DNA of 58,480 bases from Oscillospiraceae bacterium (GTDB lineage: Bacteria > Bacillota > Clostridia > Oscillospirales > Oscillospiraceae), in assembly GCA_017938625.1 (NCBI GenBank), contig JAGBBD010000037.1, forward strand, positions 1 to 58,480, read 5' to 3'. The translations under genes were made by a program, and so were the position numbers. Positions within the stretch are counted from its first letter, which is position 1. Each line of letters begins with the position of its first letter. The notes beneath the pieces were generated by a model. The model ran no database searches. It had not been told where the DNA came from and worked only from the letters and a program-made list of their open reading frames with translations. This document shows, one piece after another, positions 7,923 through 45,717 of this stretch.

Positions 7923-8090
7923 GTGATATTCCGTCTGCGACGGAGTGATATATTTTGCTGCGCAAAATGTGATATTGAAACCTACGGTTTCAGTGATATT
8001 ATATTCGCCCCTAACGCCCGCAGGCATATCACTTGCGAAGCAAATATCACGCACGAAGGTGCATATCACTCGCCATAAGGCGAATATAAC
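7923..8090. repeat. Nested GTGATAT/ATATCAC hairpin array (copy 1)
   Basis: Four GTGATAT words (7923, 7945, 7969, 7993) are separated by three small hairpins (TCCGTC-TGC-GACGGA, ATTTTGC-TGC-GCAAAAT, TGAAACC-TAC-GGTTTCA). After a 26-base centre come four complementary words ATATCAC (8026, 8044, 8063, and a degenerate ATATAAC at 8084) separated by three more hairpins (TTGC-GAA-GCAA, GCAC-GAAG-GTGC, TCGCC-ATAA-GGCGA). The left words can pair with the right words as four nested stems with hairpins branching between them. It lies between DUF4886 and tRNA-Leu. The rest of the gap (7787-7922) shows no gene. Confidence 0.8.
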
Positions 8091-8091
8091 T

Positions 8092-8127
8092 GAAAACGAC
8101 AAGTTTCTGTCGAAACTTGTCGTTTTC
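8092..8127 (-). terminator. tRNA-Leu terminator
   Basis: Sixteen-base stem GAAAACGACAAGTTTC directly after the encoded CCA, ending in a T-rich run on the minus strand. Confidence 0.85.
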
Positions 8128-9918: not shown

Positions 9919-10306
9919 AAGAAATGCCTTGCTTTGCGAGACTTCTCATAAGGAAGTCTCGCAGTTTTATTCGCCAAAGGCGAGTGATATTGCTTCGCAG
10001 TTATATGATGCTTTCGCATCGTGATATTGTCCTACGGACAGTTTTTAGGGCGAATAAAATATCACTACGACCAGAGGGAGTAATATCACTTTCACAAAGT
10101 GAAAATATCGCTCTTTGCACAGCAAAGAATATCACTTATCTTTCTTGTTTGTTGTTAAAAGGGTTTGGGTATCACCCAAAAAGAAGCATTTGTACTTACA
10201 AATGCAATGCTGGTCCTTTCCGATAAGCATAAGAAAAGTCTCGATGAATTTCATCGAGGCTTTAATCATCCTTATGAGAAGTAGTCTTTTGCAAGGCATT
10301 TCTTTT
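9917..10306. repeat. MITE-like structured element with terminal inverted repeats (GTGATAT array, copy 2)
   Basis: The ends are imperfect inverted repeats of about 37 bases (9917-9953 and 10269-10304): AAAAGAAATGCCTTGC and CTTCTCATAAGGA blocks match, with a small mismatched centre. Inside is the same design as at 7923-8090: left words GTGATAT (9984), GTTATAT (10000), GTGATAT (10021); right words ATATCAC (10059), ATATCAC (10083), ATATCGC (10105), ATATCAC (10129); with small hairpins between, for example TGTCC-TAC-GGACA, TTTCAC-AAA-GTGAAA and TCTTTGC-ACA-GCAAAGA. Further hairpins fill 10150-10260. No protein gene is visible in this 400-base gap. Confidence 0.75.
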
Positions 10307-35081: not shown

Positions 35082-35732
35082 TCACAGACTACCGGTAAAT
35101 TTAAGGCAGTATTCATACATGGGATACAGCGCCTGCAGGGTCTTGGTGACCTCTTGGGCAAGCTTTGGAGAAAACAGCAGATCGTCCGGCTGACGGTCAA
35201 TGTCCATGAAAATGCTCCGCATATTAAACAGAGACTTTAGTTCCTCGTTTTCACAGGGCTTTTTTCTGGCATATTCTTCGATCTTGCAGGAAACGCCGGA
35301 TACTTTTTCCAGTTTTTTGATCAATCCGGGAAATTCCTCCGGCTTTGCCAGAAGCATCCTGCGATATTTTTCCAGCATCTCCGTTTTGGGTCTCCAGAGG
35401 ATAAAGCCATAGCTGTAGCCCTCGGGTCTGATCTCAAAGTAGAGGGTGGGCTGCTCGCTCCACGGCAGGTTGTCCGGGCGCATACTGAGCCACAAGCTCT
35501 CCTTATACGGCACAGCAGGATGCAGACGGGCATCCTTATAGATACGCGAGCATTTATATGCCATATTGGGCACATCGCGGAAGGGCGCAAAAACCTCCTG
35601 CGCCAGTGCCTTCATAGGCTCATACAAATACTGCTGATACTCTTTTTTGTGCTCTTCAAACCAAGGTCTGTTGTTATTGAGCCGAATCCCCCAGAGAAAA
35701 TCTATGGTTTCGGGTGAAAATCCGTTGAACAT
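35082..35732 (-). CDS. DUF2461 family protein
   Basis: A 216-residue protein of the DUF2461/TIGR02453 family: MFNGFSPETIDFLWGIRLNN, NRPWFEEHKKEYQ, the central CSRIYKDARLHPAVPYKESL and PTLYFEIRPEGYSYGF. Biochemical role unknown. AGGAGG precedes ATG 35732. It starts 53 bases after the VWA gene on the same strand without a terminator between, so it may be the fourth gene of the helicase-MoxR-VWA operon. Confidence 0.85.
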   Translation of the reverse strand: MFNGFSPETIDFLWGIRLNNNRPWFEEHKKEYQQYLYEPMKALAQEVFAPFRDVPNMAYKCSRIYKDARLHPAVPYKESLWLSMRPDNLPWSEQPTLYFEIRPEGYSYGFILWRPKTEMLEKYRRMLLAKPEEFPGLIKKLEKVSGVSCKIEEYARKKPCENEELKSLFNMRSIFMDIDRQPDDLLFSPKLAQEVTKTLQALYPMYEYCLKFTGSL

Positions 35733-35785
35733 GGCAGAGTCCTCCTGTAAAGCTGCCTCTATTTTATCGAATCTCCGCCGATTTT

Positions 35786-36961
35786 TCAAGCATCCTGCAG
35801 GGTAATACGGGCGATCTTTCCCCATGGCGGCGTCACATCTTCGTTGTTGAGCAGCCACAAAACAGGGATATCACAGGCGGCATCTTCCTCCGGAAAGATG
35901 GCATAGCCGTCTGTCAAGATCACGATGGTACTGGGCGGCCGGTCAAGCATATGCTCGCGGACATAGTCAAACACCGCATGAAAACTGGTACCGCCGCCAC
36001 CTTTGGGACGGATCTTCAAAAAGCTGTCTTCATCCTCAAAGGGCTTCGGCTCCGTGACCCCGGCATCGAAAAAGCCCAGATAGCCCTTCAGCTTGCCGTC
36101 AAACTGGTCGATGGCATCCTTGATCTCGGAGTATGCCGCCGTGATCATGGCATCGGTCATAGAGGCAGACGTATCGATCATAAACAGAACATCCGTGGCA
36201 AGCAATTCCTTCTCGTTGAAGTCCGGCAGGAAAAAATCGCTGTCACTTCTGCGTCTGTCCGGCGGCAGGAAGGAATAATCCACCACCTCTTCCTGTACAA
36301 ACTCCCGCAGAACCCTTCGCCAGTCCGTCTGCCCTTTGTGCAGAGCATTCACCACTCGCATAATAGCATCGGGAACACCGCCGGAGCCTCTTGACTCCAT
36401 GGCACGGCAGGCATCCTCCAGACGCTTTGTCCATAGATCCTTCTGCGCTTCATCCGCAGGCCCGTCTCCCCACAAAGAGTGATCGTCCCAGCCTTCTTCC
36501 GGACATTTCTCCGGCAGCATATGATAGACCTGCTCTGCCGTATAGAGCCTCCCCTCCTGCCCGTTGGGCGCAAGGTGCATAGCTGTGCCGTATTTTCGCA
36601 GGGTGATCTTGGTCAGGTCATCTCTGTGGGATTCCAAAATGATGGAATTGACCACAATATCACAAGCCACATTAAAGCGGAAGCCCTGCAGATCCTTGCC
36701 GCGGGTACAGTGCTGCAGCGCCGCATGGAGGATCTCATGCATCATGACAAAGTCCAGTTCCCGGTCAGACAGGTCATCCAGAAACGCTGCGCCGAAGACG
36801 ATCCGCTCTCCGTCCGTGCAGGCGGTGGAGAGGTGCTCATCCACCGCGTATTTCATATGCATCAAGAGCATACCGAAAAAGCCGTTTTCGCACAAAATGC
36901 GCATACGGGAAAGGAGCAGTCTCTGACCGTATGCCAGATATGCCGCGTCAGATATGGCCAT
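35786..36961 (-). CDS. VWA-like protein with N-terminal HExxH metallopeptidase-like domain (DUF2201-type)
   Basis: A 391-residue protein with two parts. The N-terminal part has a zincin-like motif, MMHEILHAALQHC (H75, E76, H79). The C-terminal part is a VWA-like domain with an intact metal-ion-dependent adhesion site DTSASM (D263, S265, S267) and a late ILTDGYA. This architecture is the usual partner of MoxR AAA+ ATPases. ATG 36961 overlaps the end of the MoxR gene by 14 bases and follows AAGGAAGG. Third gene of the helicase-MoxR-VWA operon. Its own target is unknown. Confidence 0.85.
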   Translation of the reverse strand: MAISDAAYLAYGQRLLLSRMRILCENGFFGMLLMHMKYAVDEHLSTACTDGERIVFGAAFLDDLSDRELDFVMMHEILHAALQHCTRGKDLQGFRFNVACDIVVNSIILESHRDDLTKITLRKYGTAMHLAPNGQEGRLYTAEQVYHMLPEKCPEEGWDDHSLWGDGPADEAQKDLWTKRLEDACRAMESRGSGGVPDAIMRVVNALHKGQTDWRRVLREFVQEEVVDYSFLPPDRRRSDSDFFLPDFNEKELLATDVLFMIDTSASMTDAMITAAYSEIKDAIDQFDGKLKGYLGFFDAGVTEPKPFEDEDSFLKIRPKGGGGTSFHAVFDYVREHMLDRPPSTIVILTDGYAIFPEEDAACDIPVLWLLNNEDVTPPWGKIARITLQDA

Positions 36962-38063
36962 TGAGCAGCCTTCCTTTCGTCTGATACCAGCGGACAAAGG
37001 CAGGAATCCCCATAAGCACCTGCTTGTAGTCCCGTTCCAGATACATATAATCCCGCATAACAAGAGCAGAGAAATCGGGAGTCATACGGTCTGCATAGGA
37101 AATGGAGTTGGCAATGCGGCTGATCTCATGGCGGTGTGCTCTGGCATAGTCCGTCATGGCTGCCGTCAGCGCATACAGCGCCTCCGGAGTCTTGGGAAGC
37201 GGCGGTGTCTTGCCGTCAAAGATGTCCTCAAGCTTGGGAAGCTCCCGGTACACTCTGTCCCAGGTGCGCAGTTCCAGCGCCATGCCTGTGCCCACCATAC
37301 CGGCAATGAGAGGATACAGTTCCTCCGGAGACTGCCCCGTACAGTGCAGCAGGGCGCTGACCATCTCCCATGCACGAGGGGTGGCAAACGCCAGATCATC
37401 ATTGGAGGGATCAAACTTCATCAGATAGTCAGAACGGAAGGACAAAAAGCCCACCACCTTATAGTGGATGCCGTTTTTCGTTGCCCAAGTCTTCCAACTC
37501 TCAAAGTTCACTTCCACCTCCAGATGGAGCAGTCGGTTTGCCAGCGCCTTCGGCATTTTATATGCCACGCTGCGGTCTGTGACGCGGTTGCCGGCTGCAA
37601 TGACGATGCAGTTTTCCGGCAGCTTATGCTCACCCACCACACGATCCAGCGTGATCTGATAGGCTGCCGCCTGCACAGACGGGGGCGCAGCGGAAAGCTC
37701 ATCGAGGAAGAGGATGTTGATCACATCGTCCCCCTCATCCATGCGGAAGATCTGCGGCTTCAGCCATACTGCCAGCGTCTTATCCTCATTGGCAGTGGGA
37801 ATGCCGCGCAGGTCAATGGGATTGAACAGCAACAGCCGCACATCTGTGACCACAACACGCTTGCCGGTTTTCTCCTCCAGATCCTTGGCAAGCTGACGCA
37901 CACCCTGAGACTTACCGACACCCGGTGCGCCCCACAGCATGACGGAGGGCAGCGTGCGAAACGCTGTGCCCTTCATGACGGCGGCATGATAGACCGCCGC
38001 CAGGGAGTCCATGGCGCTGCCAACGCTCATGGACGGAAGAAGACCCATTTTTACCTCTTTCAT
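36948..38063 (-). CDS. MoxR-type AAA+ ATPase
   Basis: A 371-residue AAA+ ATPase of the MoxR class, likely a chaperone-like remodeller for the VWA protein. Walker A is MLWGAPGVGKSQ (residues 45-52), Walker B INILFLDELSAAPP (about 116-127), sensor 1 VIAAGNR (N159) and a later ANRLLHLEVE with a possible arginine finger. The start ATG 38063 overlaps the helicase stop in ATGA. An internal ATG 38048 with GAGGT is possible, but the overlap favours 38063. Middle gene of the three-gene system. Confidence 0.9.
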   Translation of the reverse strand: MKEVKMGLLPSMSVGSAMDSLAAVYHAAVMKGTAFRTLPSVMLWGAPGVGKSQGVRQLAKDLEEKTGKRVVVTDVRLLLFNPIDLRGIPTANEDKTLAVWLKPQIFRMDEGDDVINILFLDELSAAPPSVQAAAYQITLDRVVGEHKLPENCIVIAAGNRVTDRSVAYKMPKALANRLLHLEVEVNFESWKTWATKNGIHYKVVGFLSFRSDYLMKFDPSNDDLAFATPRAWEMVSALLHCTGQSPEELYPLIAGMVGTGMALELRTWDRVYRELPKLEDIFDGKTPPLPKTPEALYALTAAMTDYARAHRHEISRIANSISYADRMTPDFSALVMRDYMYLERDYKQVLMGIPAFVRWYQTKGRLLNGHI

Positions 38064-41000
38064 TTCTTTGCCCCCAATCGTTTATCCAGCTGCTCCAGCT
38101 TGCGCTTGCAGCTTTCGATCTGTTCCGTGTGATCCTCACCCTTGTCCAGTTCCTTCTGCACATCCTGCTGACGGGCAAGCAGTCCATCCAGATTTCGCTC
38201 CAACATCTCCAGATGCTTGGGCAGTTCCTGCAGGCAGTTATCCACTCTGATCAGCGCACCAACCTCGCTGTCGCCCAACTCCACACGGTATCTGCCGCGG
38301 CGCTGCAGCCAGATGTAAGGTTCCTGCACAGTCATATTGGCAGGCAGGATGATATCAAAGCCCTGATATGTCATAAGCGTTTCTTCCTTATGCATGAGCA
38401 CGTGCTCCTTGACTGCACCGTAGAGCAGGCGGCGCAGCTGCCTTCTCGTATCCTTGTCGTGTTCTGCACGGGCACAGGCATACGCCTGCATATCGCCGGC
38501 GCACTTTTCGATCAGCTCCTGCTGATGGGCAATGGCGCCGGGCAGTTCCAGCTTTTCCTGCTCCAGAGACAGACGCTTTTCCACAGCTTTGCGCTGCAGC
38601 GCCTGATAACGGGTGAGCAAATTTGCCGTTTCCACGCGCTCCTTGACAAGGGGATCGCCCACTGCCAATGCCTTGACTTCGGCATAGCTCAGGACTGTGC
38701 TCTCAATATCCGATCCGCTGCGAGCAGCCATGGAGCCGGAGAGCAGATCGCAGATAAAACGCTGCTTGGTCTCCAGCAGCTGCCAGGAATAAGCATCGAA
38801 GCTGCCTTCCGTGATATAACGGAAGATCTTCACCTGCTTGTTTTCATTTCCCTGACGCAGGATCCTGCCCTCACGCTGGGTCATATCGGCAGGTCTCCAA
38901 GGCACATCCAAATGGTGCAGGGCGATCAGCTTGTCCTGGATATTCACACCAAGTCCCAGCTTGAAGGTTGAGCCGATCAGCACACGGATCTCGCCGCTTC
39001 TGACCTTGGCAAACAGCGCCTGTCTGCGCTTTTCCGACTCTGCGTCATGGATAAATGCGATCTCCTCGGGCTGGACACCCATGGCGATCAGCGTACCGCG
39101 AAGATCATCATAGATGTTGAAGCCTGTCTTGGGTGTGGAGGTATCGCAGAACACCAACTGGGTGCTCCTGCTGGCTGCGGTGGTGCGGTAGATATGGAAC
39201 ACATTTTCCGCACAGCGCATGACCTTGGAGCAGTAAGTGAAGCCTGCATCAGGATCCACCAGCCGCAGATCCAGCGCAGCCTTGCGTCCGTCTGTGGTGA
39301 TCTTGAGCATATTGTCCTCTGTGCGGGGCACCATGCCGGCACGGACAAGCTCGGCGCGGGAAGAGATCTCTTTCAGATACTCGTCAAATGCCTCCGTCTT
39401 GCTCAGAAGCGCATCGCTGTAGCCATCGGTCTGCGGCAGGTCTGCCGTTTCATCCGCTTGATGGAAATCGGCAATGGACGACAGCAGCACGGTCAGTTCC
39501 GGCAGGTTGTGGAACTTGGCAAAGCGCGTTGCCAGACGATAACCGCTGGTATCCACATCGATCTCAAACTCCGTTACACGCTCGGCAAACATACCGATCC
39601 AGCTATCAAAGCTCTGCAGATCCAGCATGGCAAGCTCACCGCTCTGCAGATAGCTCTGCATGATATAGGCATCGGTAATGGAGTTGGTGATGGGTGTGCC
39701 TGTTGCCATGACCACACCGCCGCCATCATGAGTTTTCTGGACATAATGTACCTTGTTCATCATATCACGGCACTTTTTTGAGCCTGTGGCGCTGATGCCA
39801 AGTACCTTGTCCACCTTGGTCTCGATGGGCACATTCTTATAGTTATGTGCCTCATCCACAAACAAACGGTCGATGCCAAGATCCTCAAAGCAAATGCCCT
39901 CAGCTTCGCTGATCTGTGCTGTGACCAGCTCTGCCAGAGCCTCCTCCACCTTGTCTTTTTTACGTTTGAGTCCGGAGGTGGACTTTTCCGCCTTGGCGGC
40001 GATGCGTTCGATATCAGCCTTTGTCACCGTCAGCTGATCCATATAGAAGGACTTGGACAGCTTGATCTGCTCAAAGCAGCTTGCCGCCATAATGATGCCG
40101 TCATAGGACTCGTCCCGGATCTTCTCCAGCACCGCTGTACGCTTGGCTGGGGTGAACTGGGAAGGCCCAATACACAGCAGCTTTGCCTCGGGATACAGCA
40201 GCAGAAAGGTATCACGCCACTGTCCCACCAGATTATTGGGCACCACATACAGGTGCTTGTGGGAAAGTCCCATACGTCTTGCCTCCATACCGGCAGCGAT
40301 CATGATATAGGTCTTGCCGGAGCCCACTTCATGGGCAAGCAGGGTATTGGGAGAAAACAAGATCCGTGCCACAGCATTCTTCTGATACGGATACAACATG
40401 ACCTCAGAAGACATACCGGGGAATTTTAAAAAGCTTCCGTCAAAATTGCGCCTGCGCACACAACCGAACTTACGGTCAAAAATATCCTCCAGCAAGACCT
40501 TGCGGGAATGGTCGTTCCAGACCCATGCCCGGAATTCCCGGATCATTTTCTGCTGCTTTTCAAGCGCCAGAACGGTCTCGGCACGATCCACCACGCGCTT
40601 CTTCTCATCACCGGGAACAGGGCGCATAACACAGACAGTCTTCATATTCAGCGTCTTTTCCAGAATCTGCAGCGCGCCCAGCTTGGACGTACCAAACGTA
40701 TGGTTGGCTGCCACTGTGCGGCTGTGAAGATAGTCATGCTTGCCGGGCAGTTCCCATGTGCCTGTCAGTTCGTCATGCTTGGTGCCTCTGTAGGGCGTCT
40801 TCAATCCCAGCATGTGGGTGACGAAGGCATCAATGACCTCAACAGGTACCCAGGGAGAGCCGAGGGTGATATAAATATCCTGAGAGCTGACCATATCGGG
40901 CAGCAAAGTCTCCAGAGCATGGATATTATCCTGAAAATAACCCATATACGTTCTGTCTGCTTCCTTGGCTGCCAGCCATTTGCGGCGCAGATTACCGGAC

Positions 41001-41500
41001 AGATACTGCTCTGCCGTTTCCCAGCCCTTATAAAAGCACTCCTCCCAGGTCTCGGGATTCTGATAGATGGAGCCTTTCAGGGCACAGATCACGCTCTTGC
41101 AGTCGGAGCCTGTGACAGAGGCAATATACTCAATATCCACCCTTGCAAGATTGGACAAGGACAAAATCAAGCCATCGGCAGCATCTGCCGCGTGGACACC
41201 CCGAACTGCAGGAGATGCTGCAAAGGCATTTTCCCAGTCCATGGGCAGTTCCATGGATGTGACCTGACGGATTCGTTCCTGCTCCAGAGCCTGCTGACGC
41301 TGCTCTTCCTCTTTCCGGCGGCGCTTTTCTTCCAGCTGCTTCCGCACCTGCTCACGATCCCGGAGCGCTTTTTCCACACCGGTGGCTTTCCCCTTCCCCT
41401 TCACAGCAGCGGTATCGTCCTCCTTTTGCAGGAGGGACAGCAGTTCGCTGAAAATGGACAGCTGATCCATAAACTTTGTTTTGTTTTTTCCTGCTGACAT
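38060..41500 (-). CDS. Large SNF2/superfamily II helicase of the mobile-element type
   Basis: A 1146-residue superfamily 2 ATPase. A charged coiled coil at about 40-80 is followed by an accessory region with GSPWVPVEVIDAFVTHMLG, also seen in large phage and ICE methylase-helicase proteins. Helicase motifs are intact: Walker A AHEVGSGKTYIM (about 390-397), DEAH (549-552), TGTPITNS (600-607) and motif VI QREGRILRQGN (875-885). A long charged, coiled-coil-rich C-terminal tail follows. No methylase motif is seen. ATG 41500 follows GGAGGTG. It leads an operon with MoxR and VWA genes, which is unusual for this helicase family. Confidence 0.87.
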   Translation of the reverse strand: MSAGKNKTKFMDQLSIFSELLSLLQKEDDTAAVKGKGKATGVEKALRDREQVRKQLEEKRRRKEEEQRQQALEQERIRQVTSMELPMDWENAFAASPAVRGVHAADAADGLILSLSNLARVDIEYIASVTGSDCKSVICALKGSIYQNPETWEECFYKGWETAEQYLSGNLRRKWLAAKEADRTYMGYFQDNIHALETLLPDMVSSQDIYITLGSPWVPVEVIDAFVTHMLGLKTPYRGTKHDELTGTWELPGKHDYLHSRTVAANHTFGTSKLGALQILEKTLNMKTVCVMRPVPGDEKKRVVDRAETVLALEKQQKMIREFRAWVWNDHSRKVLLEDIFDRKFGCVRRRNFDGSFLKFPGMSSEVMLYPYQKNAVARILFSPNTLLAHEVGSGKTYIMIAAGMEARRMGLSHKHLYVVPNNLVGQWRDTFLLLYPEAKLLCIGPSQFTPAKRTAVLEKIRDESYDGIIMAASCFEQIKLSKSFYMDQLTVTKADIERIAAKAEKSTSGLKRKKDKVEEALAELVTAQISEAEGICFEDLGIDRLFVDEAHNYKNVPIETKVDKVLGISATGSKKCRDMMNKVHYVQKTHDGGGVVMATGTPITNSITDAYIMQSYLQSGELAMLDLQSFDSWIGMFAERVTEFEIDVDTSGYRLATRFAKFHNLPELTVLLSSIADFHQADETADLPQTDGYSDALLSKTEAFDEYLKEISSRAELVRAGMVPRTEDNMLKITTDGRKAALDLRLVDPDAGFTYCSKVMRCAENVFHIYRTTAASRSTQLVFCDTSTPKTGFNIYDDLRGTLIAMGVQPEEIAFIHDAESEKRRQALFAKVRSGEIRVLIGSTFKLGLGVNIQDKLIALHHLDVPWRPADMTQREGRILRQGNENKQVKIFRYITEGSFDAYSWQLLETKQRFICDLLSGSMAARSGSDIESTVLSYAEVKALAVGDPLVKERVETANLLTRYQALQRKAVEKRLSLEQEKLELPGAIAHQQELIEKCAGDMQAYACARAEHDKDTRRQLRRLLYGAVKEHVLMHKEETLMTYQGFDIILPANMTVQEPYIWLQRRGRYRVELGDSEVGALIRVDNCLQELPKHLEMLERNLDGLLARQQDVQKELDKGEDHTEQIESCKRKLEQLDKRLGAKK

Positions 41501-41562: not shown

Positions 41563-41580
41563 AAAGGGGGGCAAAAAACA

Positions 41581-41622
41581 GAAACGTCCGCAGATACAAT
41601 TCGAGATCTGCGTACGTTTCCT
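41581..41622. terminator. Hairpin with T-runs on both strands
   Basis: GAAACGTCCGCAGAT and ATCTGCGTACGTTTC pair with one mismatch; T-runs flank both sides. It separates carB-dapF from the helicase operon. Confidence 0.72.
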
Positions 41623-41639
41623 TTTTTGCTTTTGAGAAA

Positions 41640-41669
41640 TAAAAGGAGCAGACGATACGTCTGCTCCTT
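41640..41669 (-). terminator. carB-dapF terminator
   Basis: AAGGAGCAGACG/CGTCTGCTCCTT stem with TTTT on the minus strand, 14 bases after the stop. Confidence 0.85.
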
Positions 41670-41682
41670 GAAGTAACAATGA

Positions 41683-45717
<4,035 letters not shown>

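What the first reader, a model, noticed from the sequence alone, without database searches (positions are those of the whole stretch)
35786..41500. Three-gene system: SNF2-type helicase, MoxR AAA+ ATPase and HExxH-VWA protein in one overlapping operon
Seen: three genes overlap by 4 and 14 bases in the order helicase, MoxR, VWA; all nucleotide-binding, MIDAS and HExxH motifs are intact; a DUF2461 gene follows 53 bases later. Known: MoxR-VWA pairs are chaperone-like modules that remodel partner complexes, and this helicase type (AHEVGSGKT, DEAH, QREGRILRQGN) is typical of large phage/ICE methylase-helicases. Inferred: coupling such a helicase to a MoxR-VWA module, without mobile genes around, suggests a DNA-directed system (defence, plasmid control or repair) or a domesticated element. 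I know of no named system with this exact trio.
Basis: partly seen in the sequence, partly recalled or inferred. Interest (0 to 1): 0.77.

Follow-up and report, generated by a model that had tools for sequence, protein, structure and literature searches.

The report
Helicase with MoxR-VWA chaperone operon
In gut Clostridia three genes, a DNA-translocating helicase, a MoxR chaperone and a protease-like VWA partner, travel together as one unnamed unit that is often found near defence-type genes, which suggests an uncharacterised system acting on foreign or damaged DNA.

Summary
On the minus strand a SWI2/SNF2 helicase (38060-41500), a MoxR ATPase (36948-38063) and a gluzincin-VWA protein (35786-36961) overlap by 4 and 14 bases, with intact motifs. 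The trio is a conserved unit: same order in 32 of 45 MoxR-anchored loci, in 9 of 9 order genomes with a close MoxR (9 of 394), with correlated trees (r 0.81-0.91). It is patchy (0 of 7 congeners). Neighbours vary, but WYL regulators, GmrSD-like restriction genes and CbbX-, FtsH- or Cas4-like proteins recur. DUF2461 is not part of it. The helicase is the free-standing half of the DarB-type methylase-helicase dyad. Eight of 33 helicases with complete 5' ends, the window's included, carry a beta-clamp-type motif (QLSIF-like) at the N-terminus. I read it as a helicase-centred variant of MoxR-vWA ternary conflict systems. The unit is well supported; an anti-invader role is the leading but untested reading, with replication-coupled repair as main rival. 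No paper seen describes the trio.

The parts
38060..41500 (-). HEL: free-standing SWI2/SNF2 helicase, 1146 aa; keeps the linker region of DarB-type dyads (YLSGN motif) but no methylase
41450..41464 (-). QLSIF, beta-clamp-binding-like motif at residues 13-17 of HEL (consensus QL[S/D]LF as given in PMC3919608)
   Evidence: motif match only
40310..40336 (-). HEL motif I AHEVGSGKT (residues 389-397)
   Evidence: V392, G393, G395, K396, T397 invariant in 27 sequences
39845..39856 (-). HEL motif II DEAH (residues 549-552)
   Evidence: invariant in 27 sequences
38846..38878 (-). HEL motif VI QREGRILRQGN (residues 875-885)
36948..38063 (-). MOXR: MoxR-type AAA+ ATPase, 371 aa, overlaps HEL by 4 bases; Walker A (37908-37931); D121/E122, N159 and R177 invariant in 36 sequences
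35786..36961 (-). VWA: 391 aa, N-terminal gluzincin-like metallopeptidase domain (HEILH at 36725-36739) and C-terminal VWA with MIDAS (36161-36175); overlaps MOXR by 14 bases
41643..41669 (-). intrinsic-terminator-like hairpin after the carA-carB/dapF genes, separating them from the trio
   Evidence: pattern match
41571..41629 (-). second strong hairpin in the leader before HEL, with an A-run and a T-run at its base; terminator or attenuator. Not listed by the terminator scan
   Evidence: (196-nt leader, z -6.2 with both hairpins)
35082..35732 (-). DUF2461 gene; neighbour, not a conserved member; a promoter-like site lies at 35761-35789

Best explanation
The three genes encode one DNA-directed complex, a helicase-centred relative of the MoxR-vWA ternary conflict systems. 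Shown: conserved order and overlaps, correlated trees, intact ATPase and MIDAS motifs, patchy distribution, recurrent defence-type neighbours. Inferred: the SWI2/SNF2 protein translocates on double-stranded DNA, in some lineages recruited to sliding clamps through its N-terminal QLSIF-type motif, and so samples replicating or newly entered DNA. The VWA protein grips the helicase or its nucleoprotein roadblock through its MIDAS site. The MoxR ring uses ATP to remodel or release it, and the gluzincin domain, where active, cuts a bound protein. The outcome would be blocking or dismantling of an invading element's replication complex. In hosts with a nearby WYL regulator the operon may be switched by nucleic-acid signals.
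For: Unit: HEL directly upstream of MOXR in 32 of 45 loci, 2 more cut at contig ends; all 9 order genomes with close MoxR, of 394, hold the trio; mirror-tree r 0.91, 0.85 and 0.81 on 34 loci, 0 of 2000 permutations; overlap of exactly 4 bases in 31 of 41; trio helicases branch apart from giant mobile-element helicases. Mobility and dispensability: 0 of 7 congeners, 73-88% complete; 9 of 394 genomes from 9 of 169 genera; a broken remnant in G141 and a split helicase in G068; one trio on a virus-classed contig with a large serine integrase about 4 kb downstream (L057). Context: WYL in 14 of 41 trio loci (two of these weak), c5 AAA_lid_6 protein in 8, GmrSD-like in 5, DUF2779/Cas4-like in 5 (one a 72-aa piece), c11 FtsH-like in 4; at least one of eight families in 21 of 41 trio loci against 2 of 40 control stretches. 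PDC-S02 3.7e-92 (L012), PDC-S26 3e-34 (L022), PDC-S01 3.6e-171 (L035). Four of 8 c3-type WYL genes (E below 1e-50) in the 9 trio genomes lie within 4 kb of the trio. Literature: VMAP systems in the order VMAP-MoxR-vWA are proposed conflict systems (PMC7159879, passages and sections 7 and 20); BrxR-family WYL regulators co-localise with phage defence in 48% of cases (PMC9122601, abstract).
Against: No functional test. The accessory families were picked from trio flanks, and several were counted at the locus they came from, so 21 of 41 is inflated; 20 of 41 loci show none of the eight. The window's trio has no defence-type neighbour; its genome (71% complete) has no c5 or c11 hit and one weak WYL hit at the thresholds used. 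PADLOC gives only weak partial hits for helicase and MoxR and none for VWA. The VWA has none of the variable C-terminal effector domains of known ternary systems. The protease Glu is not universal. The strict clamp motif is missing in 25 of 33 complete helicases, and 1 of 16 giant-helicase loci also has one (L064). WYL regulators also serve DNA-damage responses (PMC10693628, abstract). Ligase, Pol III alpha and DnaG-like neighbours fit repair as well. Solo helicases exist (G073, G422:C99).
Confidence: 0.45

Rival explanations
1. A replication- or repair-associated accessory module: the helicase is recruited to the sliding clamp, removes stalled protein-DNA complexes (RapA/Rad54-like), and MoxR-VWA with its protease domain dismantles them, for example DNA-protein crosslinks; WYL regulators sense ssDNA from damage.
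For: Strict clamp-type motif in 8 of 33 complete helicases against 0.005 expected from shuffles and 0 in the other 34,763 residues, also in the solo helicase L159 and the remnant L160. An NAD-dependent ligase follows VWA directly in L104 and L106 and after one small gene in L107; a Pol III alpha-like gene precedes HEL in L102; a DnaG-like gene lies in L023. A WYL regulator acting in genotoxic stress (PMC10693628, abstract).
Against: Rare and patchy (9 of 394 genomes), whereas core repair is usually kept. GmrSD-like and PDC neighbours point to conflict. LigA, PolIIIa and DnaG enrichments are not significant alone (p 0.06, 0.17, 0.63). No clamp-like motif by the strict pattern in 25 of 33.
Confidence: 0.27
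2. A domesticated or element-borne maintenance module: the helicase half of a DarB-type antirestriction dyad, kept with a phage-type MoxR-VWA assembly chaperone, serves an integrated element or protects incoming DNA.
For: Helicase nearest to phage and ICE polyvalent proteins (phrog_10089 6e-244); MoxR and VWA match phage families phrog_1297 and phrog_1314; Bacillus phage G MoxR 50% identical with a VWA relative of 31% nearby; L057 has an integrase about 4 kb downstream; an ORF about 250 bases upstream of HEL in L019 reads like an IS200-type transposase (by eye).
Against: The trio clade is separate from the giant helicases and lacks the methylase. Of 125 plasmid records with a MoxR match none reaches 60%, the best listed being 36.5%. 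Phage G has no helicase match in the 13 kb around its MoxR. A serine-recombinase query hit 1 of 41 trio loci (tyrosine integrases were not sought by query); a tRNA lies in 2 of 36 loci. No mobile gene among 13 window neighbours.
Confidence: 0.18
3. A MoxR-VWA metabolic-enzyme activator (CbbQO/NorQD-like) with the helicase as an unrelated hitch-hiker.
For: Known MoxR-VWA pairs activate enzymes (recalled); 11 of 45 related MoxR-VWA loci have no adjacent helicase.
Against: Fixed order, overlaps and correlated trees with the helicase; the pairs are a separate clade in MoxR and VWA trees; among the 25 flank families shown of 124, no metabolic enzyme recurs beyond two loci.
Confidence: 0.05

Closest known systems
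MoxR-vWA-centric ternary conflict systems (VMAP, iSTAND, FtsH and beta-propeller types; Kaur et al. 2020, PMC7159879)
   Same: MoxR plus vWA core; gene order like VMAP-MoxR-vWA; congruent trees as reported for the VMAP type; 4 of 41 trio loci also hold an FtsH-like AAA+ M41 protein (c11)
   Different: Third component is a SWI2/SNF2 helicase, none of the four described; vWA carries an N-terminal gluzincin domain and no variable C-terminal effectors; found here in Clostridia, not in multicellular bacteria
DarB-type methylase-helicase dyad of polyvalent proteins (PMC5512222)
   Same: Same SWI2/SNF2 family and the preceding linker region (EYLSG-type motif)
   Different: Stand-alone protein of about 1,150 aa, no adenine methylase, partnered by MoxR-VWA
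MoxR plus metallopeptidase-vWA pairs of phages (group 2.2 jumbo phages, PMC7824862; Bacillus phage G gp566 and gp576)
   Same: MoxR with a peptidase-VWA protein; phage G genes are 50% and 31% identical to ours; that the group 2.2 pair belongs to the same families was not tested
   Different: No helicase match in the phage G region; role proposed for the group 2.2 pair is virion assembly
DISARM DrmD and other SNF2 defence helicases
   Same: SNF2 fold; C-terminal hits (DrmD 3e-18)
   Different: No DISARM partner among the window neighbours scanned; far below the curated cut-off (53 against 610 bits)

Membership tests
MoxR-vWA ternary conflict system | Core MoxR AAA+ and vWA pair encoded together | tested here: met
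MoxR-vWA ternary conflict system | A third conserved component, gene order third-MoxR-vWA, congruent trees (as reported for the VMAP type) | tested here: met
   shared host ancestry not removed from the tree test
MoxR-vWA ternary conflict system | Third component is VMAP, iSTAND, FtsH or beta-propeller | tested here: not met
   It is a SWI2/SNF2 helicase; an FtsH-like gene was found in 4 of 41 loci only
MoxR-vWA ternary conflict system | Variable C-terminal effector domains on the vWA component | tested here: not met
   VWA proteins end with or just after the VWA domain in the 36 aligned
MoxR-vWA ternary conflict system | Anti-invader activity | not testable with these tools
   No experiment available
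DarB-type methylase-helicase dyad | SWI2/SNF2 helicase of the polyvalent family | tested here: met
   phrog_10089 6e-244 over residues 107-1151
DarB-type methylase-helicase dyad | Fused adenine methylase (motif NVPFG upstream of the helicase) | tested here: not met
   0 of 43 trio-type helicase ORFs, 10 of them incomplete at the 5' end, have it upstream of the helicase; 15 of 19 mobile-element loci do
DISARM | drmA, drmB, drmC and methylase beside drmD | tested here: not met
   None recognised by Pfam among 13 window neighbours; DrmD score far below cut-off
Phage MoxR/metallopeptidase-vWA chaperone pair | MoxR and HExxH-vWA proteins of phrog_1297 and phrog_1314 | tested here: met
   9.8e-94 and 3.8e-69
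Phage MoxR/metallopeptidase-vWA chaperone pair | Encoded in a phage with virion genes | tested here: not met
   Of 13 window neighbours scanned, 11 with a Pfam match are chromosomal-type genes, 2 have none

The most novel reading that the evidence does not exclude
A new immune system type: a helicase tethered to the replication clamp patrols replicating DNA and, on meeting foreign replisomes, hands them to a MoxR-VWA protease-chaperone that takes them apart, with exchangeable AAA+ (c5, FtsH-like c11), ligase and restriction modules and a WYL switch added in different hosts.
Probability: 0.2. Interest if true: 0.88.

Novelty: new variant of a known kind. Interest (0 to 1): 0.62.

Why it matters
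MoxR-VWA machines are known to remodel enzymes, and ternary versions are proposed to act in immunity, but in the papers seen none has a DarB-type DNA translocase as third component. If the trio works as read, it couples a DNA motor to a protein-remodelling and possibly proteolytic ring, a new way to attack or clear nucleoprotein complexes. It also shows a phage/ICE antirestriction helicase family re-used without its methylase in host genomes. The trio is compact (about 5.7 kb, three genes) and so directly testable.

Tried and rejected
DUF2461 as fourth gene: rejected, no other trio tested has it. A known PADLOC or NCBIfam system: only partial helicase and MoxR hits. A reverse transcriptase neighbour: the RT_UG29 hit proved to be a DnaG-like protein in L023. 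tRNA insertion sites: a tRNA in 2 of 36 loci. Plasmid carriage: best listed MoxR hit 36.5% (20 of 125 records listed). MoxR in viral contigs: 8 pattern matches, no relative, yet the helicase scan found one trio there (L057), so such pattern scans miss relatives. Solved structures: no MoxR-profile match at E 0.001; the VWA N-terminus weakly matches MJ1213 (E 2e-4; that it is a minigluzincin is recalled); the helicase weakly matches SNF2, XPB and another DEAD/DEAH helicase. A methylase motif search with [DNS]PP[YFW] found nothing even in the giant helicases, so it was replaced by N[VIPL]P[FYW]. Papers with both WYL and DUF2779: none.
Full report
Observation. The overlaps are 4 and 14 bases, and the motifs were re-read at their coordinates. 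A terminator-like hairpin at 41643-41669 separates the trio from carA and carB (the latter fused to dapF); a second strong hairpin (41571-41629) lies in the leader. GC and third-position GC of the three genes (0.54-0.57 and 0.65-0.68) are within the range of most neighbours, so composition gives no sign of a recent arrival. Of 13 neighbouring window proteins scanned, 11 have ordinary Pfam matches (glycoside hydrolase 3, SpoIVB peptidase, TipA-type and AraC regulators, carA, carB-dapF, DUF2461, transporters and their binding protein) and 2 have none.

The trio elsewhere. A pattern-based scan of species genomes with the MoxR protein gave 45 loci, by record title nearly all Clostridia, with one Bacilli and one unassigned bacterium. 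In 32 of 45 the helicase ends at the MoxR start; 2 (L031, L036) are cut at the contig end; 11 are MoxR-VWA loci without an adjacent helicase, of which two (L046, L049) have under 500 bases upstream and one (L044) has a helicase about 2 kb downstream of VWA. In a sample of the window's order, 9 of 394 genomes, the window's included, have a close MoxR (E 1e-60 or better), from 9 of 169 genera, and all 9 hold the trio. None of 7 congeners, 73-88% complete, has the helicase at E 1e-20. In a phylum sample of 338 genomes, 4 besides the window's match at 37-44% identity (E 1e-40 or better) and show no helicase in the roughly 4 kb fetched, three of them having a VWA relative. Over 41 trio loci besides the window's, the genes found are on one strand; the helicase-MoxR overlap is exactly 4 bases in 31, and MoxR-VWA is 14 in 18 of 39 by longest-ORF calls.

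Helicase exceptions. In the 394 genomes the helicase query matched 79 at E 1e-100 or better; most matches are giant ORFs of about 1,600-3,400 aa at about 40% identity. Besides the trios, close relatives are a solo helicase in G073 (L159), a broken remnant in G141 (L160: truncated helicase and a VWA fragment, with WYL and a GmrSD-like pair upstream) and a second helicase in G422 without MoxR in the fetched 40 kb (L161/L162). G068 has its helicase split in two frames and a short MoxR ORF (L108), by decay or sequencing error. So the helicase can live alone and trios can decay, as accessory genes do.

Phylogeny. Trio helicases with L159, L162 and L044 form one side of the midpoint-rooted tree and the mobile-element helicases the other; the MoxR and VWA proteins of the no-helicase pairs form their own clade (dropped rows are listed under Tried and rejected). 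Distances of the three proteins over 34 loci correlate at 0.91, 0.85 and 0.81, with 0 of 2000 permutations reaching them. Shared host ancestry contributes to such correlations and was not removed.

Anatomy. The helicase matches phrog_10089 (DarB-like antirestriction, 6e-244) over residues 107-1151. In mobile-element relatives the adenine-methylase motif NVPFG lies about 290-360 residues upstream of the shared region (15 of 19 loci; the other four are cut or split), while none of 43 trio-type helicase ORFs, 10 of them incomplete at the 5' end, has it there. The polyvalent-protein paper (PMC5512222, passages read) describes the methylase-SWI2/SNF2 dyad, with DarB as archetype. The helicase N-terminus carries QLSIF in the window; by a strict pattern 8 of 33 helicases with a complete 5' end have such a motif (loose pattern 9), against 0.005 (0.20) expected from shuffles and 0 (1) in the remaining 34,763 residues; one of 16 giant-helicase loci (L064) has QLSLF too. 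The beta-clamp consensus QL[S/D]LF is from PMC3919608 (passages read). L019, L032, L056 and L102 have near-misses at the same place. Homology among these N-termini inflates the significance; clamp binding is a prediction. MoxR: Walker A and B residues, N159 and R177 invariant in 36 sequences. VWA: MIDAS D263, S265, S267 and D351 invariant in 36; H75 and H79 invariant; the catalytic-type Glu is present in 25 of 27 trio-type rows (not L025, L037) and 4 of 9 pair rows. So peptidase activity is plausible in most trios but not essential to the family.

Neighbourhood. Of 41 trio loci, 14 have a WYL regulator (L037 and L054 weak), 8 the c5 protein (about 672 aa, CbbX-type AAA with AAA_lid_6), 5 DUF2779/Cas4-like (one a 72-aa piece), 5 GmrSD-like, 4 c11 (soluble AAA plus M41 with HEAGH) and 4 c21-type proteins within the fetched flanks. 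Single loci also have a Fic and a macro-domain gene (L013, L024). Among the 11 pairs without adjacent helicase, 1 has WYL and none the other families then tested. Forty control stretches from eight trio genomes, taken from contig starts (480 kb against 311 kb of trio flank), gave one WYL hit (25% identity), one c11, one PolIIIa and one DnaG hit; at least one of eight families occurs in 21 of 41 trio loci and 2 of 40 controls, p 2e-6. The families were found in the trio flanks, and single-locus ones count themselves, so this is biased upward. Less biased: c5 at E 1e-100 or better occurs in 10 of 394 genomes (one cut at a contig start; 90 of 394 match at 1e-30, mostly by the AAA domain alone) and in 5 of the 9 trio genomes, twice linked and three times on another contig, Fisher p 4e-7, not corrected for kinship; c11 is weaker (2 of 9 against 13 of 394, p 0.03). 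Of 8 c3-type WYL genes (E below 1e-50) in the 9 trio genomes, 4 lie within 4 kb of the trio. A family scan of 109 flank proteins (the nearest 120 of 233, 11 left out by hand) listed AAA 10, WYL 8, AAA_lid_6 7, DNA ligase 3, GmrSD_N 3, M41 3 at the top of 124 families, 25 shown. PADLOC matches beside trios include PDC-S02 (L012), PDC-S26 (L022), PDC-S01 (L035) and GmrSD-type genes. An NAD-dependent ligase follows VWA directly in L104 and L106 and after one small gene in L107, and a Pol III alpha-like gene precedes HEL in L102. One trio, on a virus-classed contig (L057), has a large serine integrase about 4 kb downstream.

Interpretation. The unit is real and accessory, its neighbourhoods change from host to host, it has a DNA motor, and its recurrent company is of the defence-island kind. 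That makes an anti-invader role the best single reading (0.45). The clamp motif and the ligase, polymerase and primase neighbours keep a replication-repair role close behind (0.27). The gene order equals that reported for the VMAP ternary systems of Kaur et al. (PMC7159879: passages and sections 7 and 20 read), whose four types do not include a DarB-type helicase as third component (a SWI2/SNF2 domain is mentioned there among nucleic-acid-targeting effectors). Membership in one of their four types is therefore not claimed; working like one is.

Literature. Searches for MoxR+VWA+helicase+defense (9 papers), DUF2201+MoxR (0), MoxR+antiphage (6), MoxR+SNF2+VWA (7) and metallopeptidase+vWA+MoxR (4) showed no paper describing this trio. 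That rests on the listings with abstract starts for all, and on passages in four of them (PMC7159879, PMC12839542, PMC7824862, PMC10910872); the others were not opened. The library holds open-licence papers only, so a description elsewhere is possible.

Noticed in passing
window 41683-45717 (-): A single 1344-aa ORF joins carbamoyl-phosphate synthase large subunit (residues 1-1048) to diaminopimelate epimerase (1069-1342), an unusual fusion.
   Followed up: no
window 8021-8092 (-) and 9962-10032 (+): Two copies of the Gut-1 RNA (RF01706) on opposite strands, one beside tRNA-Leu.
   Followed up: no
L169 11404-12582 (Bacillus phage G gp576) and phrog_1314: Labelled 'HNH endonuclease', but gp576 aligns with the metallopeptidase-VWA protein over nearly its whole length (31%, 1.6e-52), so the label looks wrong.
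   Followed up: yes
L104 4913-7069, L106 11958-13922, L107 12455-14425: A divergent NAD-dependent DNA ligase downstream of VWA in three related trio loci, directly in two and after one small gene in L107.
   Followed up: partly
L102 4172-6826: A short Pol III alpha-like gene (PHP, NTPase and finger domains, 884-aa ORF) directly upstream of the helicase; relatives in L016 and L108.
   Followed up: partly
L019 7111-9129 and relatives (c5): An uncharacterised protein of about 672 aa with a CbbX-type AAA domain and an unknown N-terminus of about 390 residues, co-occurring with the trio even on other contigs.
   Followed up: partly
L052 10446-11741 and relatives (c11): A soluble FtsH-like AAA plus M41 protein with HEAGH beside some trios and WYL regulators.
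   Followed up: partly
window 41571-41629 (-): A long hairpin with A- and T-runs at its base in the helicase leader, possibly an attenuator.
   Followed up: no
L019 96-566 (-): An ORF about 250 bases upstream of the helicase reads like an IS200-type transposase (recognised by eye).
   Followed up: no
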